This document shows positions 1-57,719 of a stretch of 57,719 nt of DNA, one piece after another; position 1 is the stretch's first letter; each line of letters starts with the position of its first letter. Source of the stretch: a virus. Location of the stretch: IMG/VR virus record IMGVR_UViG_3300042922_000732, positions 1-57,719 of that record, one strand, 5' to 3'. The notes below the pieces were generated by a model. That model worked only from the letters and a program-made list of their open reading frames with translations. It did no database searches and was not told where the DNA came from. A program made the position numbers and the translations under genes.

Positions 1-165
1 ATAAATTATCAACCCCAACAACTTTTAAATCATTAGTTCTTGGTGCTACTGATAAATATCTTATTGAATTTCCCTTACTTCCTGCATATGGATCTACATA
101 TTTTACATTTTCCAAGCCTTTAATTTTCCTTAATTTATGCAACGGGTAATAAGTCGTCATCAATT
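1..165 (-). pseudogene. Distal part of a host gene interrupted by the prophage (attL side)
   Basis: On the minus strand one frame is open across this whole end, reading roughly TTYYPLHKLRKIKGLENV and on through YVDPYAGSKGNS to the window edge. It has no start or stop of its own here. When the prophage is removed on paper at the 7-bp core, this frame continues without a shift from the open minus-strand frame at 57493-57719, giving a junction that reads LLDTGHAKLMTTYY. I take it as the downstream part of a host protein-coding gene split by integration. I do not recognise the family. The gene's real ends lie outside the window. Confidence 0.75.
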
Positions 166-172
166 TAGCATG
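166..172. other. attL core TAGCATG
   Basis: The 7-bp sequence TAGCATG is shared exactly with 57486-57492, and flanking bases differ on both sides. Left of it lies host coding sequence and right of it lies phage sequence. The right-hand half-site at 179-195 is the inverted partner of the half-site at 57468-57484, as expected when attP is divided between attL and attR. By symmetry of those arms the crossover dinucleotide should be TG at 171-172. Confidence 0.8.
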
Positions 173-445
173 TGCAATGTGAATAAAACTGCAACATTTA
201 AAAAAGTATTTGAAACTACAGAAGAAAGTGTTTCTACATTATATAAAGAACTTCCAGAATACACTACAGCACAAAAAGTTTATAAAGTTAGAATGTTAAA
301 TAATCTCACTCAAAAAGAATTCGCTAATAAGAGTGGGGTTGGATATTCCACAATATGCAAATATGAGACTGGTTATAATACAAGCAAAAATAATATTAAA
401 AAAATATGTAATACATTTAACTTGCCATACGATTATTTTTACTAA
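173..445 (+). pseudogene. Detached 3' end of the phage integrase gene: XRE-type HTH domain
   Basis: An open frame from 137 to 445 runs through attL. Its first 12 codons are host DNA or core and the rest encodes about 90 residues ending in an HTH of the XRE type (LTQKEFANKSGVGYSTICKY). In the excised circle the frame lies exactly in phase with the integrase at 55792: the AGC ATG codons of both cores coincide. It is followed at once by a terminator. I therefore read it as the C-terminal domain of the full-length integrase, cut off by integration, and not as a free-standing repressor. No convincing ribosome site lies before 137, so it is probably silent in the lysogen. The HTH assignment is from visible pattern only. 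Confidence 0.8.
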
Positions 446-446
446 T

Positions 447-484
447 AAAAAACTGGAAATTCTTTTTTGAATTCCAGTTTTTTA
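447..484 (+). terminator. Terminator of the circular-form integrase transcript
   Basis: A strong hairpin (AAAACTGGAA paired with TTCCAGTTTT around a T-rich loop) follows directly after the stop at 445 and runs into T residues. Its position supports the view that the 173-445 segment is the true 3' end of the integrase transcription unit in the phage circle. Confidence 0.75.
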
Positions 485-660
485 TTATCTTCTTTTTTTA
501 ATAATTAAAATTACGCGCTTAGTTTTTTTGTCACTCTCACCACTCATTTGTTATTCGCTCCCCTTATATCTTCCTTTAATTTCCCTTAGGAGGTTGATGC
601 ATAAACGTTTCTTTATGTAAATTATTATATAAAGTTATTCAATATTTGTAAAATAATAAA

Positions 661-696
661 AAGTTGCCAAAACTCTATTGAATTTTGGCAACTTTT
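661..696 (-). terminator. Terminator after the signal-peptide gene
   Basis: Perfect 12-bp inverted repeat AAGTTGCCAAAA (661-672) and its complement (683-694), followed on the minus strand by a T-run. It closes the leftward regulator-peptide unit and probably also insulates it from rightward integrase transcription. Confidence 0.75.
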
Positions 697-751
697 CTAG
701 TTTTTTTTGCAACATTTTTAACATTTTTTCTTTTAATTTGCTTTGATTATT

Positions 752-910
752 TTACCATCCGCCTGGATCATTAGATTGTAGATGAATTTGATTAGTGCTA
801 GACATTGTGCCATTTTTAGCATTGTTAGTACTTGTAGTTTGACTTGATGCAAATGCAACATTTGTTAATAACATTGATGTTGCAACCACTGCTAATATAA
901 TTTTTTTCAT
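752..910 (-). CDS. Small secreted pro-peptide, likely quorum-signal precursor
   Basis: A 52-residue protein with a textbook signal peptide: MKK, a hydrophobic core (IILAVVATSMLLTNV) and an AFA cleavage motif near residue 21. This leaves a polar mature part of about 31 residues ending in SNDPGGW. A GGAGGT ribosome site sits 8 nt before the ATG. It lies 112 bp downstream of the TPR regulator gene in the same direction and is closed by a terminator. This is the layout of RRNPP receptor-peptide pairs, where the C-terminal end is processed outside the cell and re-imported to bind the receptor. The mature signal (perhaps the last 5-8 residues) is inference. The open frame and signal peptide are seen directly. 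Confidence 0.75.
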   Translation of the reverse strand: MKKIILAVVATSMLLTNVAFASSQTTSTNNAKNGTMSSTNQIHLQSNDPGGW

Positions 911-1022
911 GAATAATACCTCCATATAAGTTTACTTTTTTTACATTTCTTCTGTAAACATTGTAACATATTAACAGAATAAGACGATTAAAAAATATAT
1001 ATTTCCTAATTTTTTAATTTTA

Positions 1023-2306
1023 TCAAAGATTTTCTATTAATTTATCATTAAATAGATTGCTTTTCTCCTCATTTCGATATTTATAATACTTTACAAGTTT
1101 GGCATAAATCTTATTGTAATCCACCATTAAGCTTTTCTCTTTTTTAATCAATGCTTCTATATTGGATTCATCTTCTCTTTCCATATAAATTTCTAATAAA
1201 TCATTAAGTGTTTTTTTCGTAACCTCTGTATCGTCTGCCTTATTTTTTTCACATACTTCTAATGCTCTTAGAAGATATGACTCGTAATCTCCATTTATAG
1301 ATTTATAAACCAACGATGCAAAATATAAATTTTCCGCTAAATACCAATTTCCAGGATTATGTTCTAAAGATTTATCAATTGATATTTGTGCATCTTTATA
1401 TTTCCTTTGTTTTAAATAAACTTCTGCTACATTCCTGTATGTCATTGCTATCAAACCTTTATCATTTATTCGAGCTACTGGTTCCATTATTTCAATAAAT
1501 CTATTGGCAGCTTCTTCTAATTCATTGTTATCAAGCAGGCAATTTGCATATAGCATCTTAATGTCAAGTTTCCTTCTATCATTCAACTCAAATTCATCTG
1601 TAAGTTTTTTTAAATATTTTTTTGCTTTATCATATTTTTCGGTTTTCTTATATATTAATGCTTTGTTAAAATAAATTCGCTGAGAAATTTCAGAATTATT
1701 TAAGTCTTTATTTATTTTAAGCGCATAATTAAGCTGTTCTAATGCTGGTTCATAATTTTTCCGTGCAACATCGTTCCGAGATTTGCTAATATATAAATTA
1801 GCTTCACCATGTATGTTATTTGAATTAAGACATATTTTTAATCCGCAGCTACACATTTGATCACTTCTTGTATATTTTTCCTTAAAGTAATAAATAGTTG
1901 CAGCTAATTTATACATTTCAATTTTCATATCATCTTTAATATTATATTTTTTTATTAAATTTTCTCCATAATTAAGTTTCCCCTCTAAATCACACAGTTC
2001 TTTAATATCATTTAAGGCATGTATAATACTTTTTGAAAATACATTGTTAGCTTGACTATCTTCATCTTCAGTTAATTGCTCAGCTGTAATGTGATCAATC
2101 TTAATCTCTTTCATATCTATAACTTTATTAATGTTCTTTGTAATTCCAATAGCCAATTTATAGCTTAAATGCTTCTTGCCATTTTCAATCCGACTAATTA
2201 AAAATTTTGAACATACTCTGTCGGCAACATCATCTTGAGTTGCTCCAATGAGTATTCTAAAATTCTTTAATTTTAAATTTGGAGACATAATTTCATTATC
2301 AAACAT
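1023..2306 (-). CDS. RRNPP-type transcriptional regulator (HTH plus TPR repeats)
   Basis: A 427-residue protein with an N-terminal XRE-type HTH (about residues 8-60: LKLKNFRILIGATQDDVADR, then a SRIENGK recognition region) followed by helical tetratricopeptide-like repeats across residues 120-420 (for example NKALIYKKTEKYDKAKKYL and YRNVAEVYLKQRKYKDAQ). Size and order match peptide-sensing cytoplasmic receptors of the PlcR/NprR/AimR group. The start is placed at the second ATG because AGGGA precedes it by about 9 nt; the ATG 18 nt upstream has no ribosome site. The secreted-peptide gene lies just downstream. Likely role: cell-density control of a phage decision. The regulated target is not visible from sequence. 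Confidence 0.8.
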   Translation of the reverse strand: MFDNEIMSPNLKLKNFRILIGATQDDVADRVCSKFLISRIENGKKHLSYKLAIGITKNINKVIDMKEIKIDHITAEQLTEDEDSQANNVFSKSIIHALNDIKELCDLEGKLNYGENLIKKYNIKDDMKIEMYKLAATIYYFKEKYTRSDQMCSCGLKICLNSNNIHGEANLYISKSRNDVARKNYEPALEQLNYALKINKDLNNSEISQRIYFNKALIYKKTEKYDKAKKYLKKLTDEFELNDRRKLDIKMLYANCLLDNNELEEAANRFIEIMEPVARINDKGLIAMTYRNVAEVYLKQRKYKDAQISIDKSLEHNPGNWYLAENLYFASLVYKSINGDYESYLLRALEVCEKNKADDTEVTKKTLNDLLEIYMEREDESNIEALIKKEKSLMVDYNKIYAKLVKYYKYRNEEKSNLFNDKLIENL

Positions 2307-2394: not shown

Positions 2395-2508
2395 TAGACA
2401 AATATTCATAAATATAATATAATTACATTGCTAACATTCTTTTGTTAGTATTGGACGCTCTGCAATGCAAGATGGTCAAATCAGTGTATTGCAGAGTTAT
2501 TTTTTCTC
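2395..2508 (+). ncRNA. Predicted small RNA divergent from the TPR regulator
   Basis: A rightward promoter (TAGACA at 2395-2400, 17-bp spacer, TATAAT at 2418-2423) is followed by about 75 nt with no useful open frame. The transcript would start near 2430, form a small CTAACA/TGTTAG hairpin, and end at a strong terminator (CTCTGCAAT 2458-2466 paired with ATTGCAGAG 2488-2496, then a T-run). No gene upstream needs this terminator, so a short non-coding transcript explains it best. It sits back to back with the peptide-sensing regulator, so it could be that regulator's target. That link is speculation. Confidence 0.5.
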
Positions 2509-2643
2509 TAAGATTAATTTTACTAAAATATAGTAAAACATAAAACTGCTTTTTATTCCCCAAATTAGACTTTTAATTCTCATTTTACCAATTATTTCCC
2601 TTGTAAACATTTTCTTTTATAGAATTACATCTAAACCATTAGA

Positions 2644-4394: not shown

Positions 4395-5528
4395 TTAAAA
4401 TGGCATATCATCATCTTCTTCATATTCTATTTTTATTGTCTCCAATCTCGTTGTTATATTACTAATTAATATGTTTTGTCTAGTATTGCTTAACTTTTTA
4501 AAAAATGCATAAAACTCTCTAATTGTTTCAATCTTAATATCTTTTTTGGTAATATATGTATAACCACAATCAATGAAACAGGATATTAAATCATTATTAT
4601 TTTGAAGCACTTGTTCCAGTAAAGAATTTTTAATTACCGATTCCAGTGAATTAATTATTTTTTTAGGTTCATTTACAGTACTAAGTCCATTCTTTATAAA
4701 TTTTATATGCGAAATTAGTTCTTCTACAAAAGTTATATAAATAGATTTTTCATAATTAGTAAAATCTATTTCTACAAATGTATCTTCAGAAAGACATTGC
4801 ATAATTTCATAAAATGATTCAATTCGTTTCTTTGGATTGGCTACTATCATTTTATCAATTATATGTTGATATTTAAAATCAGAAACATCATAATCTTCTA
4901 ACAACTTATTAAATAACTTTCCAAGAAAATATATTTCGGTTTGATGATTATACTTTCTGTCATGTATTTCTTCTGGAAAATCACTCACTGGCCAATTAAG
5001 TAATATACTTGCTTCTTTCTCAGATTCAATTTCAATCTTTTTTCCAAATCCAAAATCTATTATTTTAACAACTCCATCATTGGTTATAAGTATATTTTCA
5101 TTTCTAATATCTCTATGTAATACTTTATTCTGCTCTAGATATTCAAACCCTTCGATTAACTGGATAAATATACTTTCAAAAACTTCATTACTTTGAAAAA
5201 ATAAATAGTTATCGATAGTTTCTCCTTCAATATTTTCCATAAGAATATATCCAGTAGTATGTTCGGGATATAAAAAATAATTATATATCCTCACAATATT
5301 TTTGTGTGATAATAAATACATTATTTTTATCTCATCTATAAATCTAGGAAAATACTCATTTTGCTTGTCAGCATTATAAGTAGAATATTTTTTACAAACA
5401 AAATTCATTCCTGTGATTTCATCTTTTACTAGAATAGCTTTCCCAGTGCCACCTCGTCCAACTTTCCTTTGATACGTGTACTCTTTTTGCCTTAAAAACT
5501 TTACTATATGACCTGGATTCATATCCAT
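4395..5528 (-). CDS. Serine/threonine protein kinase, Hanks type
   Basis: A 377-residue cytoplasmic kinase with no membrane segment. All core motifs are present: glycine loop GRGGTGKAILV (residues 24-34), ATP-binding Lys in FVCKKY (about 46), alpha-C Glu (about 66), catalytic loop HRDIRNEN (138-145) and DFG at 158-160. Residues 230-377 form a helical C-terminal region of unknown function. The catalytic loop is complete, so the enzyme should be active. GGCGGGTG precedes the ATG. It stands alone between two copies of a hairpin repeat, next to genes with defence-type domains. Kinases in such places can act in abortive infection (known in staphylococci), which would fit here as inference. Confidence 0.8.
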   Translation of the reverse strand: MDMNPGHIVKFLRQKEYTYQRKVGRGGTGKAILVKDEITGMNFVCKKYSTYNADKQNEYFPRFIDEIKIMYLLSHKNIVRIYNYFLYPEHTTGYILMENIEGETIDNYLFFQSNEVFESIFIQLIEGFEYLEQNKVLHRDIRNENILITNDGVVKIIDFGFGKKIEIESEKEASILLNWPVSDFPEEIHDRKYNHQTEIYFLGKLFNKLLEDYDVSDFKYQHIIDKMIVANPKKRIESFYEIMQCLSEDTFVEIDFTNYEKSIYITFVEELISHIKFIKNGLSTVNEPKKIINSLESVIKNSLLEQVLQNNNDLISCFIDCGYTYITKKDIKIETIREFYAFFKKLSNTRQNILISNITTRLETIKIEYEEDDDMPF

Positions 5529-8138: not shown

Positions 8139-9836
8139 TTATTCTAACATTTTTGTATTCATGAAACTACGTACAAATTCTTTATTCTCATTATACTCGA
8201 ATTCATTAAGTAATTCATATTTGTTATTTTTAAGCTTAATTATATTATTAAATTTATACTTAGAATATTCTTTTTCTTCAAAGCCGATAGAAGATACAAT
8301 CAATTGTACTTCTTCACTAACTTCACTAAATAAATAATCAAATAGTTCTCTCTTCTTTTCTTTGTCTGTTTCAACATTATTAGGACTATCTAATACCAAT
8401 GGAAATCTTATTGCATTTGGATTAAATTCATCTCTAATTTTCAACAAATTAATATACCACATGATAGTTGCGATTGGCTTATTGCTACCTCCAGCTGTAA
8501 ATACATTACTTACATCTAATAAATTTTTGTTTTTTATTTCTTTTAATCCAAATCTTTCTTTATCTTTTATCATAAGCTCATAATATCTAGAATTTATTTT
8601 CTTTTTAGCTTCATCATAGTTCCTTTTCTCTTTATTTAACTCCTTCAATCTTTCATCTATGGTTAAAAGGTTTGATGTTATTGTTCCTAATTCCCGTATT
8701 ATAGTTTCCCTAAGTTCAATATATCCTTTATATTTTAAAATATCATTTATTTCTCTTGAGTTAATACTTATTTTTTCTTCGTATACATTTAATATTTCTA
8801 AAATATCTCTATACTTACTTTCTTCATTCTTAATCTTTTTCTCTATATTTATTAATATAAATTCTAAATCTTGTTTTAAAAATAATATGTCTTCTATCGT
8901 ATTGTATTTTTGGATACGAACTTCTAACTCATCCTCAATCCTTGATTTACAATATGGACAAATATGATTGATAATTTGTTTTACTTCTTTTTCTGTATCA
9001 TTGTTAAATACGTCTAATTCTTTAACATTGGAAATTAATTCTTCTTTTTGATTTCGAAGATTAATTAGGGATTTTTTTATTTTGTTTAAATTATCAATTA
9101 TCGTATTATATTCATCCTTGTATTGTTCTACTTCTATTTTCAGACTTTCTATATTCGTTGAATAATCAGTTCCTTTAATACTTTTATTAATTTTTTCGAG
9201 CATATTTTGATTAATAGTTCTCTCATCTTGATACTCTTTATGATTTCCTTTTAATTTTTCCAATTCTTTAATAAGTGTATAATATTCTCTAGTATACACA
9301 TTAAAATGATAATATAACACTTTGTCTTTATAATTAGAGTATTGTTGCAGATTCTTGAATGAACTAAAGTTTGTACCACGCATTTCATCTTGGTCTATAT
9401 AATTAAGTAAATAATTATATGCAGGTGGAGTTATTTCTAACTTATCATCTTTTTTATTTGGTAATTCTACTGCAAAATCAAATAATTCTTTTAAATATTC
9501 TGCAAGTTCTTCTCTAGTAATAGTTTTATATAATTCCTTAAAACCATCTTTTAAATATATCTTGAATAATCTTCCATGCCTAAATATATAGTATGATTTT
9601 TCTTTTACAATAAATTCTAAAATGAAAATTTTATTCTCCACATCCCATTGACCATCAAAAATACAATCTGCACCCAAAGAATGATAAATACTTTTTAGTA
9701 TAATAGATTTTCCTCTTTTAGTTCCATCTATTTCACTCGAAGTTATAATATTTCGTCCTTTAGTAAAGGGTATGACTTTAGCTTTCTTTTCATTTATTGA
9801 AAAAATATATAATTTAGTTATTATCAATCTATTCAT
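8139..9836 (-). CDS. SMC/Rad50-like ATPase with zinc hook (DUF2326/ABC-3C or Lamassu type)
   Basis: A 565-residue SMC-like protein. An N-terminal P-loop (GTKRGKSIIL, Lys at about 43) is followed by long coiled coils split by a CPYC zinc-hook motif (about 293-296). The C-terminal lobe has a signature-like TAGGSNKP (about 447) and Walker B FPLVLDSPNN (about 480), a wording typical of DUF2326-type ABC proteins in three-component defence systems. The start at 9836 uses GGAGAGG 5-11 nt upstream and overlaps the stop of the nuclease gene by 8 bp, so the two are translationally coupled. Such ATPases sense foreign DNA and license a partner nuclease in related systems. I cannot separate ABC-3C from Lamassu by eye. 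Confidence 0.75.
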   Translation of the reverse strand: MNRLIITKLYIFSINEKKAKVIPFTKGRNIITSSEIDGTKRGKSIILKSIYHSLGADCIFDGQWDVENKIFILEFIVKEKSYYIFRHGRLFKIYLKDGFKELYKTITREELAEYLKELFDFAVELPNKKDDKLEITPPAYNYLLNYIDQDEMRGTNFSSFKNLQQYSNYKDKVLYYHFNVYTREYYTLIKELEKLKGNHKEYQDERTINQNMLEKINKSIKGTDYSTNIESLKIEVEQYKDEYNTIIDNLNKIKKSLINLRNQKEELISNVKELDVFNNDTEKEVKQIINHICPYCKSRIEDELEVRIQKYNTIEDILFLKQDLEFILINIEKKIKNEESKYRDILEILNVYEEKISINSREINDILKYKGYIELRETIIRELGTITSNLLTIDERLKELNKEKRNYDEAKKKINSRYYELMIKDKERFGLKEIKNKNLLDVSNVFTAGGSNKPIATIMWYINLLKIRDEFNPNAIRFPLVLDSPNNVETDKEKKRELFDYLFSEVSEEVQLIVSSIGFEEKEYSKYKFNNIIKLKNNKYELLNEFEYNENKEFVRSFMNTKMLE

Positions 9837-10896
9837 AAACACCCTCTCCATATCTTACTAAAACTAATATGACTAATGCTTTCTTATCATCTGTAGTATA
9901 TTCTAATGTAAATTCATTCGAAAATATTTCTATTAATATTTCTGTAGTTTCTTCGAAAGTTTTATCTAATTCTTCCAAATGTTCATTAATATATTGGGCA
10001 ATCATCTCTTCAATTTTTTTTAATTGCTTATTTATAGTTAATTCTTTTACTATTTTACCAAGAGCTATATTCATCTTTGTATTATCTCTAAATCCATCAT
10101 ATATTTCATTAATTTTTGTCTTGGCTTTTTTAGTTGATTCATCTGCGACATTAATATATTTTTTTATGATTGTATTAAATTCTGATTTTGTTATACCTTT
10201 CTTACTAATAACTTCTGAATAATCATTACATTGTAATTCATAGTTTGCCTTCACAGCAATTGTATCTGATAATGCTCTATATAACGTCACTACCTTTTTA
10301 GGTTCTTCTCCTGTAATTTTCATAAAGAAATTAACTGTTTGTCCAATTAAACTGTTGGATGGTTCAAACAAATCCATAGAAGTAAAAATATAGTACGAAC
10401 TATTTAAATCTATATCTTCTTCTATATTTAATTCTTTTTTTAGGTTTTCATTAACCAATTCCATACTTTTTTCATCTAAATTTACTAGTTCAAATTCCTT
10501 TACAGATGATTTTATTTTCTTATCTGCTGTTTTTAAAGGTGTATTTACCACTATGGCTATTTTACTTTTTAAATCGCCTTCTTCATTATCAATAATATTT
10601 TTCAACACATATACTTTTCCTAATATAGAATTTCCTTGAGCATCAGGACCACTTATTTTTTTTATTGAATATGGAGAGCCCTTGCTACTTGTTTTAATTT
10701 GATAAAACTCCATAGACTCATTTAAATGCAATTCTATATCACATACATAATCAAATACCATTACAAAATCATTTTCCGACTCGTATATGTTATATATCTT
10801 CTCCAAACCCCATAACATTTCATTCCTAAATCTATTTTTAGAACGTGAACCAGATAAATCACAAGGTAATTTCATATACAAACTATCTTTATCCAA
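9829..10896 (-). CDS. DUF4297-like nuclease effector of the SMC-type defence pair
   Basis: A 355-residue protein. The N-terminus matches the Cap4/DUF4297 nuclease pattern: RFRNEMLWGLEKIY (about 22-35), FVMVFDYVCDIELHL (44-58) and EFYQIKTSSKG (63-73), a PD-(D/E)xK fold with the last catalytic pair as Q-x-K. The C-terminal two thirds are helical and may dock the ATPase. The start codon is TTG, 8 nt after GGGGGT. It is the first gene of a two-gene operon with the SMC-like ATPase. DUF4297 domains cut DNA in several anti-phage systems. The proposed role is defence of the lysogen against other phages. Confidence 0.65.
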   Translation of the reverse strand: MDKDSLYMKLPCDLSGSRSKNRFRNEMLWGLEKIYNIYESENDFVMVFDYVCDIELHLNESMEFYQIKTSSKGSPYSIKKISGPDAQGNSILGKVYVLKNIIDNEEGDLKSKIAIVVNTPLKTADKKIKSSVKEFELVNLDEKSMELVNENLKKELNIEEDIDLNSSYYIFTSMDLFEPSNSLIGQTVNFFMKITGEEPKKVVTLYRALSDTIAVKANYELQCNDYSEVISKKGITKSEFNTIIKKYINVADESTKKAKTKINEIYDGFRDNTKMNIALGKIVKELTINKQLKKIEEMIAQYINEHLEELDKTFEETTEILIEIFSNEFTLEYTTDDKKALVILVLVRYGEGVYE

Positions 10897-45199: not shown

Positions 45200-45231
45200 T
45201 ACCGCATTATTCAATTTTCAAAGATCAATTT
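45200..45231. repeat. Cassette-boundary repeat upstream of moron 1
   Basis: A 32-bp sequence starting TACCGCATTATTC and ending CAAAGATCAATTT. It is identical to 46627-46658. Its first 13 bp are the inverse complement of 44295-44307. Confidence 0.7.
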
Positions 45232-46626: not shown

Positions 46627-46658
46627 TACCGCATTATTCAATTTTCAAAGATCAATTT
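46627..46658. repeat. Cassette-boundary repeat upstream of moron 2
   Basis: 32 bp identical to 45200-45231, beginning with TACCGCATTATTC. It lies about 95 bp before the SLATT gene start and 34 bp past the stop of the next gene. Confidence 0.7.
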
Positions 46659-47077: not shown

Positions 47078-48082
47078 TTAAACTACTAACTTTCTATATT
47101 CATGTTTAAGATTTTCCTGACTTAATCGAGCATAATTTTGATGTGTAGTGGTTGGTGTAGTATGTCCTAATATTTCTTGAACTCCTACAATTGACATTCC
47201 ACTATTTAATAATGTAGTTGCCTGAGTCCTTCTAAACTTATGAGCATGGACTCTTTCAGTTACATCTGTTCTTTTCCTTATTCTAGTTAACATTAACTGT
47301 AATGCTCTTACTTTGATATGATTGTGTGGAGCTTTCTCAGATAAAAATAAATATTCTGATATACCTTCTCTAGTTTCAATATACTTTTTCATATGAATCT
47401 TTGCTTTAGTTGAGAAGAAAACAACTCTCTGCTTACTACCCTTGCCAGTTACAATAATGCTTTTTTCATTCCAGTTTATATCATCTAGTTTTATATTCTT
47501 TAATTCACTAATTCTACAGGCTGTACTTGTAAGTAATTCAAAGAAAGTTTTTTCACGTTCTGTATTACATGCATCTCTTAAACTTTCAAGACTTTCTTGT
47601 TTATAGCATTTTTGAATTATTTTAGGAACTTTAGTTTGTTTTAATTTACTTGCTGGATTAGCAAATATATACTCCTCATTTTGTAGCCATCCAAAAAAAC
47701 CTTTTAGGCATGTTATATATCCATTTATTGTTGATGGCTGCTTATTTGTACTCATAAGTTGTAAAAACATTCTCAAATCCATTGTTGTTATAGTTGAAAC
47801 TGGCTTTGTAAAAAATAGATCTAATTTGTTAAGAAATAATCTGTAATTGGTTAAAGTCTTTTCACTTAGTCCTTCTAATCTCTTACATGCAATAAATATT
47901 TGTGCTTTCACTTCAATATCACTTGCAACTAGATCCTTACATTTTGTATTAATTTCATAATCATATAAAGTTTCATCTATTTTATTCTTCACTTCTAATT
48001 GAAAAGATAAATCCTGTTCCAATACCGGCATTAATAAAGTTAATTTTCCTAGTAGTCTTATGCTCAATTCATCATTTAACAT
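47078..48082 (-). CDS. Full-length tyrosine recombinase (XerC/D-like)
   Basis: A 334-residue protein with core-binding domain (about 50-145: KRLEGLSEKTLTNYRLFLNK, FGW) and catalytic domain: R190 (TACRISEL), Lys (GKGSKQR, about 217), H281-x-x-R284 (HKFRRTQAT), H307 (LGHTTPTT) and Y317. All key residues are present. It lies in the early replication region, far from the att site, so it is probably not the integrase. It may resolve multimers of the replicating circle or act at dif-like sites. It is one of five recombinases here. Confidence 0.85.
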   Translation of the reverse strand: MLNDELSIRLLGKLTLLMPVLEQDLSFQLEVKNKIDETLYDYEINTKCKDLVASDIEVKAQIFIACKRLEGLSEKTLTNYRLFLNKLDLFFTKPVSTITTMDLRMFLQLMSTNKQPSTINGYITCLKGFFGWLQNEEYIFANPASKLKQTKVPKIIQKCYKQESLESLRDACNTEREKTFFELLTSTACRISELKNIKLDDINWNEKSIIVTGKGSKQRVVFFSTKAKIHMKKYIETREGISEYLFLSEKAPHNHIKVRALQLMLTRIRKRTDVTERVHAHKFRRTQATTLLNSGMSIVGVQEILGHTTPTTTHQNYARLSQENLKHEYRKLVV

Positions 48083-48115
48083 TCCCTAATTCTCCTATAC
48101 ATTTTTTGTAAGATT

Positions 48116-48340
48116 TTAAAGTCTACTATCATCAAATAAAAATTTTTCTCTTTTTAGCGCTTCTCCACTATTACTTTCAATATCACATTCTCTAACTTCA
48201 TATAGACTTCTATATTTTTTATATGTTATTGCTGTAGTTTCCTTTATTTTAAATGTATCAACTAAGCCTTTTAATATTTTCTCCCTTGGAGCATCCTTAT
48301 TTTTATTCAAGAAATCACGTATCTTTTTAGGTATAGCCAC
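48116..48340 (-). CDS. Small DNA-binding-like early protein
   Basis: A 74-residue basic helical protein: IPKKIRDFLNKNKDAPREKI, LKGLVDTFKIKETTAITYKK. The spacing suggests an HTH. It lies between the recombinase and an unknown gene. Not recognised. Confidence 0.5.
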   Translation of the reverse strand: MAIPKKIRDFLNKNKDAPREKILKGLVDTFKIKETTAITYKKYRSLYEVRECDIESNSGEALKREKFLFDDSRL

Positions 48341-48356
48341 ATCTCTTCCCTCTTTT

Positions 48357-48599
48357 CTAATTTACAATTTGGGTAATATACCACATATCAAATATTTCAT
48401 CTGGCAATATGTATGTACACTTTTGCCAATTTGTTATTGTTGAATTATAAAACTTCAAATTCTTCTCTTTTGAAAATTTTTCTATTATATAACTATCACC
48501 ACTGCTTTTGCTTGTAATAATTACATTCCCATCTAGACCACTTACCCAGGCTTCAATAAACGTATATTCTTTTGACTTATCGATTTTATTAATATCCAT
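48357..48599 (-). CDS. Unknown small early protein
   Basis: An 80-residue protein with beta pattern (YTFIEAWVSGLDGNVIITSK, DSYIIEKFSKEKNLKFYNST). AAGGTGG precedes the ATG. It follows parB by 113 bp. No family recognised. Confidence 0.5.
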   Translation of the reverse strand: MDINKIDKSKEYTFIEAWVSGLDGNVIITSKSSGDSYIIEKFSKEKNLKFYNSTITNWQKCTYILPDEIFDMWYITQIVN

Positions 48600-48712
48600 A
48601 TTTCCACCTTTCTTATATTTTTATAAAGAGAGCTTTACGCCCTCTTATTTTTCTGCAGTAACTTTAACATTAACTTGTAACCCCTAATGCTCCGTATAGT
48701 CCTGCAGGTTAA

Positions 48713-49756
48713 TTATGTTTGTGTATTTAACCAATTTACACATGTTTGATGTTTATTATCGTTTCTACATATAAGTGCAAGATCACATATGCCTGTACAT
48801 CCATTTCCACCATTACACCTACTACATATGAAATTGGCTAATTCTTCTATATTCATTTCTTTTATTCTGTCAATTACTTTCTTAGCCATATATTCTGGTA
48901 CTATCTGCTGTACTACTTCACCAGATTTTATATCCACAACATCATTTCCAATAATGGTCAAATTAATATTTTTAACTTCTGTTTCGCTTTCCGAAACGGG
49001 CACTGTTTCTTTTATGGTTTCTTTTACTATAGTTGTTATATCCTTTGGCTTTACTTCTTCTCCAATAACTATCTTATTTACTATTTCTTTCTGTTTATCT
49101 TGCGGTAATTTACTTGTTTCATATGCTGCTGTAATTCCCAAATTACCTTTTTTAAATTCTTCCTTCGCTTCTTCTGTAAGATTATTATTAATGCTCTCCA
49201 TCCTTGCTACTTGTGTAGATGAAGTACTTAATATGTCTGCTATTATTTCTCTAACTCTACCAGGCAATTTTTCCTTTTTCTTATATTCAAGTAAAAGAGT
49301 TTTTAACTTTTCGGCTTGCTTAGTTTTCTCCCAATCTGTAAGCTGTCTAGCTGTCGAATTTGTTATTAATAATAATAGTTTATCTTTAATTGAATCCTCT
49401 TCATTCTCTACCTTACATGGAGCATATTTAAATTGTGTTTTACCTTCTTCAAACAATTTTTTTAAAGCTAAATACCTTCTATGTCCTGCTATAATTTCAT
49501 ATTTTGTGTCCGAATCGGACACATTTTTATTATCTACTTTCTTAACAACCAAGTTTTGTTGAACACCAAATATCTCAATTGAATCCTTAAGCTCTTTAAG
49601 TTCATCTTCATCTATTGAATAAAAGTTTTCTTCTTCCCATGGAATTAAATCATTAATATCTATTGGAATAGTCTTGAATTTTGTAACTTTTTCTCTATTA
49701 ACTTCATTATTTTCTGAACTACTGCCAATTAGTTCAAACATATTAAACTTACCCAT
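48713..49756 (-). CDS. parB: ParB-like partition protein with a C-terminal Cys cluster
   Basis: A 347-residue protein. The ParB/Spo0J nuclease-like domain spans about residues 28-120 (IPIDINDLIPWEEENFYSID, FGVQQNLVVKK, YEIIAGHRRYLALKKL). An HTH region (ADILSTSSTQVARMESINNN) follows. The C-terminal 45 residues contain eight cysteines (FICSRCNGGNGCTGICDLAL), not usual for ParB and probably a zinc site. It follows parA by 27 bp. ParB uses CTP to spread from parS sites; no parS was found by eye. Confidence 0.85.
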   Translation of the reverse strand: MGKFNMFELIGSSSENNEVNREKVTKFKTIPIDINDLIPWEEENFYSIDEDELKELKDSIEIFGVQQNLVVKKVDNKNVSDSDTKYEIIAGHRRYLALKKLFEEGKTQFKYAPCKVENEEDSIKDKLLLLITNSTARQLTDWEKTKQAEKLKTLLLEYKKKEKLPGRVREIIADILSTSSTQVARMESINNNLTEEAKEEFKKGNLGITAAYETSKLPQDKQKEIVNKIVIGEEVKPKDITTIVKETIKETVPVSESETEVKNINLTIIGNDVVDIKSGEVVQQIVPEYMAKKVIDRIKEMNIEELANFICSRCNGGNGCTGICDLALICRNDNKHQTCVNWLNTQT

Positions 49757-49783
49757 TCTCTTTTCCTCACATAATCAATTCTT

Positions 49784-50548
49784 TTAAGAATTTAAAAATT
49801 CTTCAACTAAATCCATATAATCTTTAGCTGCATTACATCTTTTTGAACATTCTAAAATTGGCTTATTCTCAAAAGAACTTTCATCAATCTTTACTGTTCT
49901 CCTAATATGTGTCTTAAACATTGGATAACCTGTATTATTATTTAAATAATCCTCTCCCTGAATGTTCACTTGATTTTTAGCAAATTGAGTAATAAAACAG
50001 CCTTTTAACTTAAGATCTGGATTCATTTCTTTGGCATAATCTATTTGCTCTATTAATTCCTTCATCCCATCAAACGTAAATTGATCTATCTTTAATGGTA
50101 TTAATATTTCATTACTTGCTACCATCGCATTTATAACTGAAACATTAATATCTGGTGGATTATCTATCACAGCATAATCATAATTATCTTTTACATTGTC
50201 TAAAGCTTTTCTAAGTATATATTGTTGTGGTCTGCTAGAATCCATAATTACGCTAAGATTTGCTTTAGCTAGTCCCATATTTGCAGGAATTACATCTAAA
50301 TTTTTATATCTTGTCTCAGCAATAACATCTTCTATATCAATATTTCTATTAATCATAATATCTGCAATGCTTAATTCATCTTCATTATGCAATCCAAATA
50401 ATTTAGTTGTATTTCCTTGTTTATCATTATCTATAAGTAGCACTTTTTTGCCATATACTGTGGACAAAATGTGAGCAATGTTAATACTACTCATTGTTTT
50501 TGCAACTCCACCCTTAAGATTAATAATACTTATAACTTTCATACTCAT
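49784..50548 (-). CDS. parA: ParA-family partition ATPase
   Basis: A 254-residue protein with the deviant Walker A LKGGVAKTMSSIN (residues 10-22), Walker A' LLIDNDKQGNTTKLFGL and Walker B YAVIDNPPDIN. No N-terminal HTH, so it is a Soj-like (type Ib) ParA. With ParB it could place the phage circle in the cell or, in the lysogen, act on a host process. Such a pair is a plasmid hallmark and suggests that the phage has or had an extrachromosomal stage. Confidence 0.85.
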   Translation of the reverse strand: MSMKVISIINLKGGVAKTMSSINIAHILSTVYGKKVLLIDNDKQGNTTKLFGLHNEDELSIADIMINRNIDIEDVIAETRYKNLDVIPANMGLAKANLSVIMDSSRPQQYILRKALDNVKDNYDYAVIDNPPDINVSVINAMVASNEILIPLKIDQFTFDGMKELIEQIDYAKEMNPDLKLKGCFITQFAKNQVNIQGEDYLNNNTGYPMFKTHIRRTVKIDESSFENKPILECSKRCNAAKDYMDLVEEFLNS

Positions 50549-50576
50549 AATTTCAAACCTCTTCTCTCATTATTTT

Positions 50577-50735
50577 TTACTTACAATGTAAAATTCTTCT
50601 CTTTATTCTGTTTATATTGTCCATACTGTTCATAAAAGCTTGTTTCTTACCTTCATTCTCCAATTGTCTCTTTTTAGCTATGTCTCTAATCGTTCTTTGT
50701 GCTAATTCATGTGGTGTCATTTTTCTACATTCCAT
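50577..50735 (-). CDS. Small basic helical protein
   Basis: A 52-residue protein (MTPHELAQRTIRDIAKKRQL, ENEGKKQAFMNSMDNINRIK) whose ATG overlaps the end of the VRR-NUC gene by 11 bp. The helix pattern is clear, the function is not. It precedes parA and probably shares its transcript. Confidence 0.55.
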   Translation of the reverse strand: MECRKMTPHELAQRTIRDIAKKRQLENEGKKQAFMNSMDNINRIKRRILHCK

Positions 50736-51123
50736 CAAACACACCTTCTTTAACAATTGTTTTAGACTTTTCTAAATACTTAGTTAATTTTTCTGATGCT
50801 TCTTGCCATCCATAGCAAACCTCAACATAATACCCTTGTTCAATTAAATCCTTGATCCATTTTTTCTGCTTATTAGTGGGTTTATTATCTCCAACTTTCA
50901 TTTCTATATAAGCACCATGATAACCACCCCTAGGTACTGGCAATGCTAAATCCGGTACTCCTGCTTTAACTCCTTGTCTCTTAAGTGAAACAGCTTCTTT
51001 TTTATCACGCCTTCCACCGTTTGGCACATGATATAACAAATCTAATTCTGGAAACTCTTGAGCAGCCCACATTGCCCACTGAAATAAACATATCTGTTCT
51101 TGAGATTCTTTTGCTGAAAACAT
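50725..51123 (-). CDS. VRR-NUC domain nuclease
   Basis: A 132-residue PD-(D/E)xK nuclease of the virus-type replication-repair family: SQEQICLFQWAMWAAQEFPE, HVPNGGRRDKKEAVSLKRQG, KAGVPDLALPVPRGGYHGAY, IEMKVGDNKPTNKQKKWIKD. The catalytic D in GVPDL and E-x-K in IEMK are present. Phage versions process replication or recombination structures. Start at 51123 after GGAGG. The adjacent HUH gene fits a replication block. Confidence 0.85.
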   Translation of the reverse strand: MFSAKESQEQICLFQWAMWAAQEFPELDLLYHVPNGGRRDKKEAVSLKRQGVKAGVPDLALPVPRGGYHGAYIEMKVGDNKPTNKQKKWIKDLIEQGYYVEVCYGWQEASEKLTKYLEKSKTIVKEGVFDGM

Positions 51124-51133
51124 ATAATTCCTC

Positions 51134-51865
51134 CTATTCTCTTTTGACTTCATTTGCAATTTTTATCATTGTATATTTTAAATATCCATAACCAGTAAAT
51201 TTATTTACACCTTTAAATATGGAATTTTTATCTATGTAATAGCCTTTCTTTGCTTTTGGAACTGATTTATACCATTCTCTTGTGCTAATAATTATTTTAT
51301 TTGGTTCAGGTATTAATAGATTTTTGCTGCAGTTCCATCTCTTACTTTGCAGTTCTTTGCTTTTACATGTTTGTTTTATTAAATAAGATGCTAATTCTGC
51401 ATACTGTCCGGTCTCATCTAAAGGGAAAACTTTAACTCTTCCCTTCGTCCAACATTTTTGAAGTATCTTGGTGTCTATATGATTTATAACCAGATGATGA
51501 TGCCTGGCACCTTTACTCCCAACTTCCATTACATGTATATACTTTAATTCCTTGCCTTGTTTTTTATATTCTTTTCTAAGTTCTCTAAGAGCTTTATCTA
51601 TATCTTCTCTCATTTGCTCTTTTGTATCTGGTCTTTCATCTTTTCTATAATCAAATACTGTATGAAAATCTCCTTCTCCATAATTTGCATTTATTCTCTG
51701 TCTTAATTTTTTCTCTGCTAATTTTAAATTTATCTCTTGTTGATCTTCTGTAGTTTTATTTACAACTTCTCCTCTTTTTACCCCTTTAGCTTTATATCTA
51801 AGGGTATAGTATTTTTCCACCTCTACTGTTTTACCAGCATTAGTTATACTCATAATGTATGGCAT
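51134..51865 (-). CDS. HUH replication-associated endonuclease (REP type)
   Basis: A 243-residue protein. Motif II is ARHHHLVINH (HUH at about 122-124), motif III is ELASYLIKQTCK (catalytic Tyr at about 161, Lys at about 164), and ELKYIHVMEVGSKG fits motif I. This is the pattern of rolling-circle Rep proteins found in many clostridial and bacillus phages. It would nick an origin for replication. Start at 51865 after GAGG. No nick-site hairpin was identified by eye with confidence. Confidence 0.7.
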   Translation of the reverse strand: MPYIMSITNAGKTVEVEKYYTLRYKAKGVKRGEVVNKTTEDQQEINLKLAEKKLRQRINANYGEGDFHTVFDYRKDERPDTKEQMREDIDKALRELRKEYKKQGKELKYIHVMEVGSKGARHHHLVINHIDTKILQKCWTKGRVKVFPLDETGQYAELASYLIKQTCKSKELQSKRWNCSKNLLIPEPNKIIISTREWYKSVPKAKKGYYIDKNSIFKGVNKFTGYGYLKYTMIKIANEVKRE

Positions 51866-51986
51866 ATCTATAACCTCACTTGTCATCTTCTGTAAATGTT
51901 AAATATCTTTTATATTTGTCCTAAAGTTAATAGATTTATCAAGTCTCAAAGCCTTGATTTCATTTGATTTTTCGCCATACATTTGG

Positions 51987-52223: not shown

Positions 52224-52463
52224 TTACTTCTTCATTTCATCTAAGCATCTTGTACAAATATTCTTGCCTTTATAATTTATTACATCCTTCCCTTCGTTGC
52301 AGAATATACAAGTCGGCTCATATTTTTTTAATATTATTTGATCTCCATCTGTATATATTTCCATTGGATCACATTCATTTATATCCATTGTTTTTCTTAG
52401 TTCCTTTGGAATTACTATCCTTCCTAACTCGTCGACCTTCCTTACTATTCCTGTTGCTTTCAT
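52224..52463 (-). CDS. AbrB/SpoVT-like transition-state regulator with Cys cluster
   Basis: A 79-residue protein. The N-terminal SpoVT_AbrB swapped-hairpin domain is plain: MKATGIVRKVDELGRIVIPK, ELRKTMDINECDPMEIYTDG. The C-terminal part (CIFCNEGKDVINYKGKNICT) has a four-cysteine cluster found in clostridial AbrB paralogues. It is a DNA-binding dimer that may repress host or phage genes in growth-phase control. GGAG ribosome site. Confidence 0.85.
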   Translation of the reverse strand: MKATGIVRKVDELGRIVIPKELRKTMDINECDPMEIYTDGDQIILKKYEPTCIFCNEGKDVINYKGKNICTRCLDEMKK

Positions 52464-53558: not shown

Positions 53559-53693
53559 TTATTTTTTATTAAAATATCTATTCATATAATCATCTAAATT
53601 CTGACTAGCTATTAATGCTTCAATAGAAGCATGTCCATATTTATTAATTGCTTCATGCATCAGTTCTCTTAGCTCCTCTCCCTTTATATCCAT
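53559..53693 (-). CDS. Spo0E-like small protein
   Basis: A 44-residue protein: EELRELMHEAINKYGHASIE, then ALIASQNLDDYMNRYF. Two helices joined by a short turn and the SQxLD signature (S30, L33, D34) match the Spo0E family of aspartyl-phosphate phosphatases, which act on Spo0A-P and delay sporulation. The ATG overlaps the TGA of the gene before it (ATGA), so the two are coupled, with GGTAAG in place of a strong ribosome site. A phage copy could hold the host in the growth state. The match is by motif and length only. Confidence 0.55.
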   Translation of the reverse strand: MDIKGEELRELMHEAINKYGHASIEALIASQNLDDYMNRYFNKK

Positions 53694-53848: not shown

Positions 53849-53959
53849 TTACACTTCTCCTTAAAATAAATTTATTTTGATATTGTATGTATTTTTAAAA
53901 ATTTCAACCTTATCTTAAGCTGTTTTTATAATTTGAGCTTTTCAAAAATTCTAACTAAA

Positions 53960-54199: not shown

Positions 54200-54215
54200 G
54201 AAATCAATCTCCTTA

Positions 54216-54282
54216 AAATAAATTTATTGTATTAGTATGTGCATATTGTAAAATTCTAAACTTATTTTAAGTTATGTATTGG
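54216..54282. repeat. Duplicated regulatory segment, copy 1
   Basis: About 65 bp upstream of the excisionase-like gene, nearly the same as 54477-54540. Common blocks are AAATAAATTTATT, TATTAGTATGTGCA and AATTCTAAACTTATTTTAAG. A more diverged version lies at about 53862-53935. Each precedes a leftward small gene, so the element probably holds promoter and operator. Confidence 0.65.
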
Positions 54283-54462: not shown

Positions 54463-54476
54463 GAATCAACCTCCTT

Positions 54477-54540
54477 AAAATAAATTTATTATATTAGTAT
54501 GTGCACATTGTGGAATTCTAAACTTATTTTAAGTTACTGT
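54477..54540. repeat. Duplicated regulatory segment, copy 2
   Basis: Second copy of the element at 54216-54282, upstream of the frameshifted gene at 54462. The central TGTGCACA is palindromic in this copy. Confidence 0.65.
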
Positions 54541-54684
54541 TTTATATATTATTTGTTACGTCAAAAATTGCAGCAAGGCTATTTTTCTATAGTTAAACTG
54601 AATATAATCGCTTCGAGCTATAAAACGTGATATATAAGTTTTGTTATGTTAATGATTTGATTAAGGCTCTTTAGCCCATTTATC

Positions 54685-55365: not shown

Positions 55366-55414
55366 TATATTTAAATAAAAATAAATTATAATTTATTAAA
55401 GGATGGTTAATATA

Positions 55415-55792
55415 ATGGAAATTAGTACATTAGGTATGAATATTAAGACTTTAAGAGAGAAAAAGGGATGGAGCGTAAACAAATTAAAAGAAATTAGTTC
55501 TGTTGGATATGCAACTCTACATGACATAGAAAGTGGCAAAAGTCAAACAATGAATTCTAAAAGCCTAGAAAAAGTTGCTAGAGCACTTAATACTACAAGT
55601 GATGATCTATTAAATATAGAATCTATAGAGTTTGTAGTTGAAGATATCGCAGAAACTATAGATGCTATTTTTGAATCAGAGGAATTAAAATTAGATGGAA
55701 TAAATTTAAGTGAATACGAAACTGAATTTTTGAAAGACTTCTTCGCCGCAGGAGTAGAGAAAATAAGAAAGAAAAGAGTTGAACAAAAATAA
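55415..55792 (+). CDS. CI-like XRE repressor
   Basis: A 125-residue protein: N-terminal HTH (LGMNIKTLREKKGWSVNKLK, SSVGYATLHDIESGKSQTMN) and a short helical C-terminal part without a LexA-type peptidase, so induction is probably not by self-cleavage. Start at 55415 with AAAGGA about 9 nt upstream; the ATG at 55403 has none. Its stop shares one base with the integrase ATG (TAATG), so repressor and integrase are translated together, an unusual link of immunity and recombination. Confidence 0.85.
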   Translation: MEISTLGMNIKTLREKKGWSVNKLKEISSVGYATLHDIESGKSQTMNSKSLEKVARALNTTSDDLLNIESIEFVVEDIAETIDAIFESEELKLDGINLSEYETEFLKDFFAAGVEKIRKKRVEQK

Positions 55793-57600
55793 TGAACAAA
55801 AGAATTGCGATATATAGTAGAAAATCAAAGTTTACTGGAAAAGGCGATTCGATAGAAAACCAAATTGAAATGTGTAAGGATTACATAGAAAAAAATATAG
55901 GCACAAATACTGAAATAACTGTATATGAGGATGAAGGTTTTAGTGGCGGAAATCTTGATAGACCTAAGTTTAAAAAATTAATGTCTGATATTAAAAATAA
56001 AAAAAACGATATCTTAATATGTTATAGATTAGATCGTATTTCTAGAAATGTTGCAGATTTCTCTTCAACATTAGAATTGCTACAAGCTAATAATTGTGAT
56101 TTTATATCAATAAAAGAACAATTTGACACTAGTACGCCTATGGGAAGAGCAATGATATATATTGCTAGTGTATTTGCTCAATTAGAGCGTGAGACAATAG
56201 CAGAGCGCGTTAAAGATAATATGCTTGAAATGGCAAAAAACGGTCGATGGACTGGCGGAAAAATCCCACTCGGTTTTCATTCTGAAAAAATAAAAGTAAT
56301 CGACGAACAAGGATTAACAAGAGAAACTCCACAATTAATTGTTAATGATGAAGAAATACAATTTGTTAAGTTTCTATATGAAAAATATCTAGAATTAGGA
56401 AGTTTGCATAAATTAGAGGTATATATAACTCAAAATCAAATTAAATCTAGAAATGGCATTCTATATGAAAAATCTTCACTTAAAATAATTTTGCAGAACC
56501 CTATATACGTAAAGGCTAATGAGAATGTTGTAGAATATCTAAAAAATAATAATTGGTCCATTTACGGTGTTGCTGATAATATACATTCTTTATTGACTTA
56601 CAATAAGACAGAACAAACCAAGAAAAATGGAAAGTATACTAAACAAAATAAGCCTCTAGACGAAAGATTCGCAGCTGTAAGCAACATAAAAGGTTTTATT
56701 GATCCACAATTATGGTTAAATGTTCAATATCAGTTTGATAAAAACAGAGATAAATTCCCACGCCTAGGGAAAACACATAATGCTCTTTTGGTTGGAAAGC
56801 TAAAGTGTGGAAAATGTAAAGAATATATGTTAATTCAACACGGCAAAGTATCTGCTGTTACTGGGAAAAAATTATTTTATTATACATGTTCACTTAAAAG
56901 AAAATCTCACAGATCATTATGCAATAATGATAACGCTAAAGCTGATAAAATTGAAAATCTAGTTTTATTATCTCTAAAAAGTTTAGCCTATAAACAAGAT
57001 GAATATTTAAATAATATAAAAAAAGGTTACAAAGAAATGACAAGCCAAAAAGGAATTAAAATAGAATTTCTTTCTCTTAAGCAATCATTAAACGAGAAAA
57101 AAAATCAAATTGATAATTTAGTAAATAAACTTTCCTTTGCTCCCGAAATATCAGATATATTATTAGAAAAAATAAAAACCTTAAAATCAGAATGTATTGA
57201 TATAGAAAGCAAAATACATTCATTAAAATCTAATGAAGACAAAGCAAAATTAGAGTTATTAAATATAGAAATTATTAAACAATTATTAGATAAATGCGCA
57301 AATATAGAACATCTTACTAGAGACGAGCAAAAAGAAATTATTGACACTTTAATTGATGTTGTTTATTGGTATGGCAATGGAGATGATGAAGGCATAAAAA
57401 TTAAATTCATAGGCACAAATGAGGAAGATAGCACTATTGAATATACTGAAGCTGAACTGCAATCGATGTTGCAGTTCAGTTCACCTAGCATGGCCCGTAT
57501 CGAGAAGAATGATATTTTCCGCAAATTCTTTCAAGGCATATTGCTGGCAAACCTTTGTATTAAGCTTGTCATAATTTATATCTTCCTTTGGGACCTTTAA
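55792..57600 (+). CDS. int: Large serine integrase, C-terminus replaced on integration
   Basis: A large serine recombinase of 602 residues as it stands. Catalytic Ser9 lies in YSRKSKFTGKGDSIENQ, with YRLDRISRNVADFSSTLELL and RERVK-type features in the resolvase domain. The recombinase domain follows (TGGKIPLGFHSEK to about 330), then a zinc ribbon (LKCGKCKEYM and YYTCSLKRKSHRSLCNN, about 337-375) and the coiled-coil motif (about 400-490). Codons after the core at 57486-57492 are antisense host DNA and encode a chance tail (RIEKNDIFRKFF...). In the phage circle the frame would pass through the core into the HTH at 173-445, giving 657 residues. Confidence 0.9.
   Translation: MNKRIAIYSRKSKFTGKGDSIENQIEMCKDYIEKNIGTNTEITVYEDEGFSGGNLDRPKFKKLMSDIKNKKNDILICYRLDRISRNVADFSSTLELLQANNCDFISIKEQFDTSTPMGRAMIYIASVFAQLERETIAERVKDNMLEMAKNGRWTGGKIPLGFHSEKIKVIDEQGLTRETPQLIVNDEEIQFVKFLYEKYLELGSLHKLEVYITQNQIKSRNGILYEKSSLKIILQNPIYVKANENVVEYLKNNNWSIYGVADNIHSLLTYNKTEQTKKNGKYTKQNKPLDERFAAVSNIKGFIDPQLWLNVQYQFDKNRDKFPRLGKTHNALLVGKLKCGKCKEYMLIQHGKVSAVTGKKLFYYTCSLKRKSHRSLCNNDNAKADKIENLVLLSLKSLAYKQDEYLNNIKKGYKEMTSQKGIKIEFLSLKQSLNEKKNQIDNLVNKLSFAPEISDILLEKIKTLKSECIDIESKIHSLKSNEDKAKLELLNIEIIKQLLDKCANIEHLTRDEQKEIIDTLIDVVYWYGNGDDEGIKIKFIGTNEEDSTIEYTEAELQSMLQFSSPSMARIEKNDIFRKFFQGILLANLCIKLVIIYIFLWDL
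57452..57492. other. attR: attP left arm and core TAGCATG
   Basis: Core TAGCATG at 57486-57492. The arm GTTGCAGTTCAGTTCAC (57468-57484) is inverted relative to GTGAATAAAACTGCAAC (179-195), 14 of 17 matched, so the joined circle has a dyad attP centred on TG. CTGAACTGCAA at 57452-57462 and TTGCAGTTCAG at 57469-57479 form a further perfect inverted repeat within the integrase gene, so a third copy of the half-site motif lies beside attP. Confidence 0.75.
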
Positions 57601-57719
57601 CACAACAACACCTTTAGTATCTAATTCGTTTCTAATTTCTTCTGACAAACTTTCCTTTGCTAATTTACATGATCCTGAAAATGCTCCTAATATATCATCA
57701 CCTCTTTCACCTTGAATAT
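57493..57719 (-). pseudogene. Proximal part of the host gene interrupted by the prophage (attR side)
   Basis: On the minus strand one frame is open from the window edge: IQGERGDDILGAFSGSCKLA, KESLSEEIRNELDTKGVVVL, KVPKEDINYDKLNTKVCQQY, ALKEFAENIILLDTGHA, then the core. Past the core the prophage adds AGG TGA, so the host protein ends early in the lysogen. Joined to 1-165 the frame is unbroken. The family is not recognised; the sequence looks like a cytoplasmic enzyme with alpha/beta pattern. Confidence 0.75.

What the first reader, a model, noticed from the sequence alone, without database searches (positions are those of the whole stretch)
752..2306. Phage-encoded peptide quorum-sensing pair (HTH-TPR receptor and secreted pro-peptide)
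A 427-residue HTH-TPR receptor is followed by a 52-residue protein with a signal peptide and the C-terminal end SNDPGGW, closed by a terminator. This is the RRNPP/arbitrium layout. A phage of clostridia with such a system, close to the attachment site and the conversion island, may tune lysogeny or host behaviour to density.
Basis: partly seen in the sequence, partly recalled or inferred. Interest (0 to 1): 0.85.

Follow-up and report, generated by a model that had tools for sequence, protein, structure and literature searches.

The report
Prophage-carried peptide quorum-sensing pair
A virus integrated in a solvent-producing Clostridium carries its own copy of a known bacterial cell-to-cell signalling pair (a secreted peptide and its sensor protein), so the virus may be able to gauge how many infected neighbours there are and adjust the host's sporulation or metabolism.

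Summary
On the minus strand lie a 427-aa HTH-TPR receptor (1023-2306) and a 52-aa Sec-type propeptide ending SNDPGGW (752-910), closed by a terminator (658-697), about 0.6 kb from attL of a complete ~57.3 kb prophage. The host is a close relative of Clostridium saccharoperbutylacetonicum.

All 19 homologous receptor loci found (15 in Clostridium genomes, 4 in viral contigs; three carry one near-identical system) have a downstream propeptide with a signal sequence and a variable C-terminus. Receptor phylogeny splits exactly by pheromone class: P-x-G-W endings, which include every clearly phage-borne copy, against short endings (DPH/DPN/DAQ) in the chromosomal copies, which mostly sit beside spo0E.

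The pair belongs to the clostridial QssR-QssP branch of the RRNPP superfamily, not demonstrably to arbitrium. By gene order and strand, a genome consistent with C. saccharoperbutylacetonicum carries QSS3, an experimentally studied system of the same class, at the end of a prophage. Published qssR3 deletion lowers sporulation and sol-operon expression, so tuning of host behaviour is the likeliest role. Lysis-lysogeny control is possible but unproven.

New member of a known kind. A conserved inverted repeat found only upstream of qssR genes, and the class-matched pheromones, are useful extras.

The parts
752..910 (-). Propeptide (QssP-like), 52 aa: Sec-type signal sequence MKKIILAVVATSMLLTNVAFA, linker, predicted pheromone at the C-terminus (IHLQSNDPGGW)
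   Evidence: ORF and ribosome-binding site; 19 of 19 homologous loci have one; signal sequence conserved (70% mean pairwise identity over residues 1-21) while the three residues before D/N-P/A average 23%
755..775 (-). Codons of the last seven residues, SNDPGGW, the predicted core of the pheromone
   Evidence: Variable end of the propeptide family; one relative (L064) repeats this unit in tandem, VYHLNTQDPN-SVYQLNTQDPN
960..968 (-). Conserved TGTTACAAT, an extended -10-like promoter element of the propeptide gene
   Evidence: Conserved in the receptor-propeptide gap of most of the 15 loci aligned; promoter function inferred
1023..2306 (-). Receptor (QssR-like), 427 aa: N-terminal Xre-type HTH and a C-terminal TPR superhelix
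   Evidence: Pfam TPR_12 E 1.9e-13, HTH_3 E 0.003; 40-61% identity to 15 Clostridium receptors; AlphaFold2 pLDDT 89; NprR Z 24.4 over 330 residues
2458..2496 (.). Inverted repeat CTCTGCAATR...CATTGCAGAG upstream of the receptor gene: operator or 5' leader hairpin
   Evidence: Same element upstream of qssR in about 13 of 20 loci; exact pattern occurs only upstream of qssR in 7 Clostridium genomes; paired changes
2518..2538 (.). Perfect palindrome TTTTACTAAAATATAGTAAAA upstream of the receptor gene, candidate operator
   Evidence: Near-identical in L074, L078 and L079; function inferred
658..697 (-). Intrinsic terminator after the propeptide gene
166..172 (.). attL core TAGCATG; bases 1 to about 172 are host DNA (FAD-dependent oxidoreductase gene)
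   Evidence: 95% identity to a chromosomal empty site in G028
57486..57492 (.). attR core TAGCATG; 57486-57719 is the other part of the same host gene
   Evidence: 95.7% identity over 234 bases to the same empty site
53559..53693 (-). Spo0E-like small protein of the same prophage; possible effector, not adjacent to the pair
   Evidence: PF09388 match at 53574-53678, 32.7 bits, over the curated cut-off

Best explanation
A prophage-encoded quorum-sensing system of the clostridial QssR-QssP type. Shown here: the gene pair, the signal sequence, the phylogenetic match between receptor clade and pheromone class, the prophage location and the family membership. Inferred: the propeptide is exported by the host Sec system, cleaved after AFA and trimmed to a C-terminal peptide of about 7-11 residues (within IHLQSNDPGGW), and re-imported by the host oligopeptide permease. 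It then binds the TPR superhelix of the receptor and changes how the HTH domain acts on DNA. Because only lysogens make this peptide, its level reports the density of lysogens. The likeliest output is tuning of host stationary-phase behaviour (solvent formation, sporulation), as published for QssR3 of C. saccharoperbutylacetonicum, which I find to be prophage-borne, plus regulation of its own locus through the upstream inverted repeats. Confidence: about 0.93 that it is a working-type receptor/pheromone pair, about 0.5 that host sporulation/metabolism is the main target.
For: Pair and signals. 15 homologous receptors (40-61% identity) in 7 of 68 Clostridium genomes and 4 in viral contigs, all with a propeptide gene downstream. 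Receptor tree: P-x-G-W and short classes each need a single change, 0 of 500 shuffles as low, support 100/99; residue 210 is Arg in 7/7 against Met in 12/12. Tandem pheromone units in L064. Structure pLDDT 89, NprR Z 24.4. G028 positions and strands agree with qssR1, R2, R3 and R5 of strain N1-4. The R3-like locus lies beyond phage tail and endolysin genes and is identical in viral contig L078. Deleting qssR3 lowered sporulation, spo0A and sol-operon expression (PMC7206700). The prophage also encodes Spo0E-like and AbrB-like proteins.
Against: No peptide binding, secretion or phenotype could be tested. In the phage-borne loci spo0E is not adjacent to the pair, unlike in the chromosomal ones, so the target may differ. 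In N1-4, deletion of several qssR genes gave similar fermentation phenotypes, so QssR3 effects may be indirect. LGN and other unrelated TPR proteins score as high as NprR in the structural comparison. Naming G028 as N1-4 is an inference from gene order, strand and genome size.
Confidence: 0.62

Rival explanations
1. Arbitrium-like: the pair controls the lysis-lysogeny decision or prophage induction, the pheromone favouring lysogeny when lysogens are dense.
For: Phage-borne HTH-TPR receptor plus secreted peptide. In viral contig L077 the homologous pair sits beside a divergently transcribed Xre-type repressor and early genes, a layout that PMC10075063 cites as indicative of operon control. In the circular form of the window phage the pair would lie only about 2.3 kb from the repressor-like gene 55403-55792 (distance across att).
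Against: In the prophage the pair is at the attL end, beyond lysis and cargo genes, and in L078, L079 and L080 it also follows the endolysin gene. No AimR-like match was found in the phage collection even at E 10. No AimX-like element was identified. Half of the tree is chromosomal, with no phage around it.
Confidence: 0.22
2. The pair regulates the neighbouring cargo island (kinase 4395-5528 and Lamassu-like LmuAB 8139-10896), switching phage-encoded anti-phage defence with lysogen density.
For: HTH RRNPP receptors often regulate adjacent genes; the genes between the pair and the lysis cassette include strong LmuA (E 1.4e-117), LmuB (E 1.6e-201) and PD-T4-6-type kinase matches.
Against: Only adjacency. 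The island is not seen next to the pair in L078, L079 or L080, and no copy of the qssR-specific inverted repeat lies in the island at the stringency used.
Confidence: 0.12
3. Decayed or silent cargo: a host QssR-QssP copy picked up by the phage and no longer used.
For: L061 in a chromosomal setting is the closest receptor by identity (61%), and the window receptor has a longer branch (0.48).
Against: Both genes are intact, with ribosome-binding site, terminator and leader; class-specific residues and pheromone form are kept; independent phages carry the class.
Confidence: 0.04

Closest known systems
QssR-QssP systems of Clostridium saccharoperbutylacetonicum (PMC7206700), above all QSS3
   Same: HTH-TPR receptor (40-45% identity to the four G028 loci), propeptide downstream with a near-identical signal sequence; the QSS3-like pheromone SRDPDGW is of the same P-x-G-W class; its locus too is at the end of a prophage and shares the upstream leader
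   Different: Different pheromone (SNDPGGW), only 41-42% receptor identity to QSS3, and no adjacent spo0E, in contrast to QSS1, QSS2 and QSS5
Qsr-Qsp systems of C. acetobutylicum (PMC7376267)
   Same: Same gene order; pheromones with conserved Leu, Pro and C-terminal Trp (QspB active peptide AEPTWGW), as in L-x-x-x-x-P-x-x-W here
   Different: About 22-26% identity; a separate clade; Pro at -5 there, -4 here
Phage/prophage RRNPP systems catalogued by RRNPP_detector (PMC10075063)
   Same: Prophage-borne receptor/propeptide pairs, some next to Spo0E/AbrB homologues, including one in C. acetobutylicum ATCC 824
   Different: Here spo0E and abrB homologues are in the same prophage but about 50 kb away in the integrated order
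Arbitrium (AimR-AimP-AimX) of Bacillus phages
   Same: Phage-encoded HTH-TPR receptor with a secreted short peptide
   Different: No detectable sequence kinship, no AimX found, and a different place in the prophage

Membership tests
RRNPP superfamily | N-terminal Xre-type HTH (except Rap) | tested here: met
   HTH_3 E 0.003, below the curated cut-off, but PlcR HTH is the top PDB sequence match, helices 9-66 in the model, and the HTH is conserved in the family
RRNPP superfamily | C-terminal TPR superhelix | tested here: met
   TPR_12 E 1.9e-13; model pLDDT 89; NprR, Rap and PlcR among the structural matches, though unrelated TPR proteins score alike
RRNPP superfamily | Adjacent gene for a secreted propeptide with a variable C-terminal pheromone | tested here: met
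   Window and 19 of 19 homologous loci
RRNPP superfamily | Direct binding of the mature peptide by the receptor | not testable with these tools
   No complex prediction or assay available
QssR-QssP branch of Clostridium | Full-length sequence homology to QssR receptors with syntenic QssP | tested here: met
   40-61% identity over the full length; tree support 100/99 for the branch; strain identity of G028 inferred from positions and strands
QssR-QssP branch of Clostridium | spo0E-like gene immediately downstream (several chromosomal members) | tested here: not met
   None near the pair; a spo0E-like gene is at 53559-53693. Not universal in the branch either: also absent near L072, L074, L078-L080
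Arbitrium (AimR-AimP-AimX) | Receptor homologous to AimR | tested here: inconclusive
   No AimR among phage-collection matches at E up to 10 and none in the structural lists; remote kinship not excluded
Arbitrium (AimR-AimP-AimX) | Control of aimX and of lysis-lysogeny | not testable with these tools
   No AimX-like element identified; needs experiment

The most novel reading that the evidence does not exclude
Clostridial prophages share a private communication channel: a receptor clade with P-x-G-W pheromones, distinct from the short pheromones of the host's own QssR systems, through which lysogen density resets host sporulation and solvent formation (or switches the adjacent phage defence island). 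QSS3, studied as a host system, would then be phage-to-phage signalling.
Probability: 0.3. Interest if true: 0.75.

Novelty: new member of a known kind. Interest (0 to 1): 0.48.

Why it matters
If the pair works as inferred, a temperate phage of solvent-producing clostridia listens to the density of its own lysogens. It would also mean that one of the QssR systems already shown to affect sporulation and butanol formation in C. saccharoperbutylacetonicum (QSS3) is a phage gene pair rather than a host one. Deletion strains and peptide assays for that species are published, so the question can be tested directly. The exact match between receptor clade and pheromone class gives a ready set for mapping specificity (for example Arg/Met at residue 210).

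Tried and rejected
Close-relative searches with the single receptor gave nothing in phages, plasmids, viral contigs or genome contigs; relatives appeared only after the host genus was found through the terminase and through an alignment query. The first scan of propeptides missed minus-strand loci because those loci are not turned; corrected. Rfam gave no match in the window. The qssR-specific inverted repeat was tested as a general regulon operator: no other genomic site at exact pattern and none beyond the shuffled level in the window, so a wide regulon through this element was rejected; operator versus RNA hairpin stays open, since paired changes fit both. BFVD fold search gave only generic TPR proteins. 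Idea 'P-x-G-W is strictly phage-borne' rejected: L061 is chromosomal with an adjacent spo0E, and L072 is of uncertain setting. A first base-pair count used a mis-set structure, replaced. AimR is absent from the lists, which does not exclude kinship.

Full report
Observation. The minus strand carries, in order of transcription, a receptor gene (2306 to 1023, 427 aa), a 112-base gap, a propeptide gene (910 to 752, 52 aa) and a terminator (697-658). The propeptide has a positively charged start, a hydrophobic core, an AFA cleavage-like site and ends IHLQSNDPGGW.

Element. The record is a virus record of 57,719 bases. Bases 1-172 and 57486-57719 match two abutting parts of one FAD-dependent oxidoreductase gene in G028 at 95-96%. 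They share a 7-base core, TAGCATG, so the window is a complete prophage of about 57.3 kb with a short host flank on each side. The structural genes resemble a Clostridium puniceum prophage contig (terminase 89% identity). The large serine integrase (55792-57600) lies at the other end. The pair is about 0.6 kb from attL.

Relatives. A protein search of 68 genomes of the genus gave 15 receptors in 7 genomes at 40-60% identity. An alignment query gave four more in viral contigs; L074, L078 and L079 carry one near-identical system. Every one of the 19 loci has a propeptide gene downstream. The signal sequence is conserved (70% mean pairwise identity over the first 21 residues), while the three residues before the conserved [DN][PA] average 23%. 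L064 repeats the pheromone unit in tandem, as expected if the C-terminus is the signal.

Matching of receptor and pheromone. Propeptides end either in P-x-G-W (SNDPGGW, INNPGGW, VNDPDGW, SENPTGW, SRDPDGW, TQDPKGW) or are cut short (DPH, DPN, DPY, DAN, DAH, DAQ). On the receptor tree each class is one side of a single branch, support 100/99, with 0 of 500 label shuffles as low. Residue 210 in the TPR region is Arg in 7 of 7 and Met in 12 of 12. Near-copies make the clustering somewhat less striking than the counts suggest. C. acetobutylicum Qsp peptides also end in Trp (PMC7376267) and their receptors fall outside both classes, so the long form is probably ancestral (inference).

Setting. Phage-borne: the window, L077 (beside a divergent repressor and early genes), L078, L079 and L080 (directly after the endolysin), and the G028 locus L074, which follows baseplate and endolysin genes and is followed, in the next 20-kb stretch, by chromosomal genes. 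Chromosomal short-class copies usually have a spo0E-like gene within about 1.5 kb; phage-borne copies do not. The window prophage has its own Spo0E-like gene at 53559-53693 and an AbrB-like gene at 52224-52463.

Link to experiment. In PMC7206700 qssR1, R2, R3 and R5 are Cspa_c00280, c21720, c27220 and c56960. The G028 loci at 0.03, 2.39, 2.96 and 6.38 Mb have matching order and strand, so L074 is taken to be QSS3. Its deletion lowered sporulation efficiency, spo0A (by 37%) and the sol operon (by more than half), and complementation restored solvents. That the QSS3-like locus is prophage-borne follows; I did not find this stated in the papers read.

Leader. An inverted repeat (window 2458-2496) lies upstream of the receptor in about 13 of 20 loci and nowhere else in 7 genomes at exact pattern. 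Three of its ten pairs show changes on both sides. It is absent, with a block of about 140 bases, in L061, L066, L070, L071 and L080. It may be an operator for autoregulation or a 5' hairpin.

Structure. AlphaFold2 with five sequences gave pLDDT 89. The TPR part matches NprR at Z 24.4 over 330 residues and Rap at about 20, but LGN also reaches Z 25, so the fold alone is not diagnostic. Asn292 is invariant even in an alignment with C. acetobutylicum-type receptors, in keeping with the conserved Asn of RRNPP peptide grooves (own knowledge; inference).

Mechanism and rivals. The best reading is a lysogen-density sensor of QssR-QssP type acting mainly on host stationary-phase behaviour. Arbitrium-like control and control of the adjacent Lamassu/kinase island are the main rivals. 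None of the functional steps has been shown for this pair.

Novelty. RRNPP pairs in prophages, including clostridial ones with Spo0E neighbours, were catalogued before (PMC10075063), and QssR-QssP is a described subfamily. This is a new member of a known kind, with two observations of use: the prophage origin of the QSS3-like system and the receptor-class match to pheromone class.

Noticed in passing
window 8139-10896 (-): Lamassu-like defence genes LmuB (8139-9851, E 1.6e-201) and LmuA (9829-10896, E 1.4e-117; Cap4 nuclease domain) between the lysis cassette and the quorum-sensing pair.
   Followed up: partly
window 4395-5528 (-): Ser/Thr kinase resembling PD-T4-6 and MADS kinase defence proteins.
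   Followed up: no
window 53857-53930, 54209-54282, 54471-54544: Three copies of a 74-base leader with an imperfect palindrome, each just upstream of a small early gene, one of them the transcript that includes the Spo0E-like gene; looks like a repeated phage operator.
   Followed up: no
window 55792-57600 (+): The large serine integrase ORF runs across attR (57486-57492), so its last ~36 codons are host DNA; the C-terminus should change on excision.
   Followed up: no
L137 (G014:C9:47455-47987): A 71% match to window 5-529 spanning the left att site suggests a related element integrated at the same site in another Clostridium genome.
   Followed up: no
window 45200-45231 and 46627-46658: Perfect 32-base direct repeat flanking a 1.4 kb segment.
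   Followed up: no
window 47078-51886 (-): Tyrosine recombinase, ParB, ParA, and a G2P-type Rep protein in a prophage that also has a serine integrase; possible phage-plasmid ancestry.
   Followed up: no
L064 (G038:C8): Propeptide with two tandem near-identical pheromone units.
   Followed up: partly
L079 around locus position 10001-10031: The receptor gene seems to have lost one base near its start relative to L078, shifting the frame.
   Followed up: no
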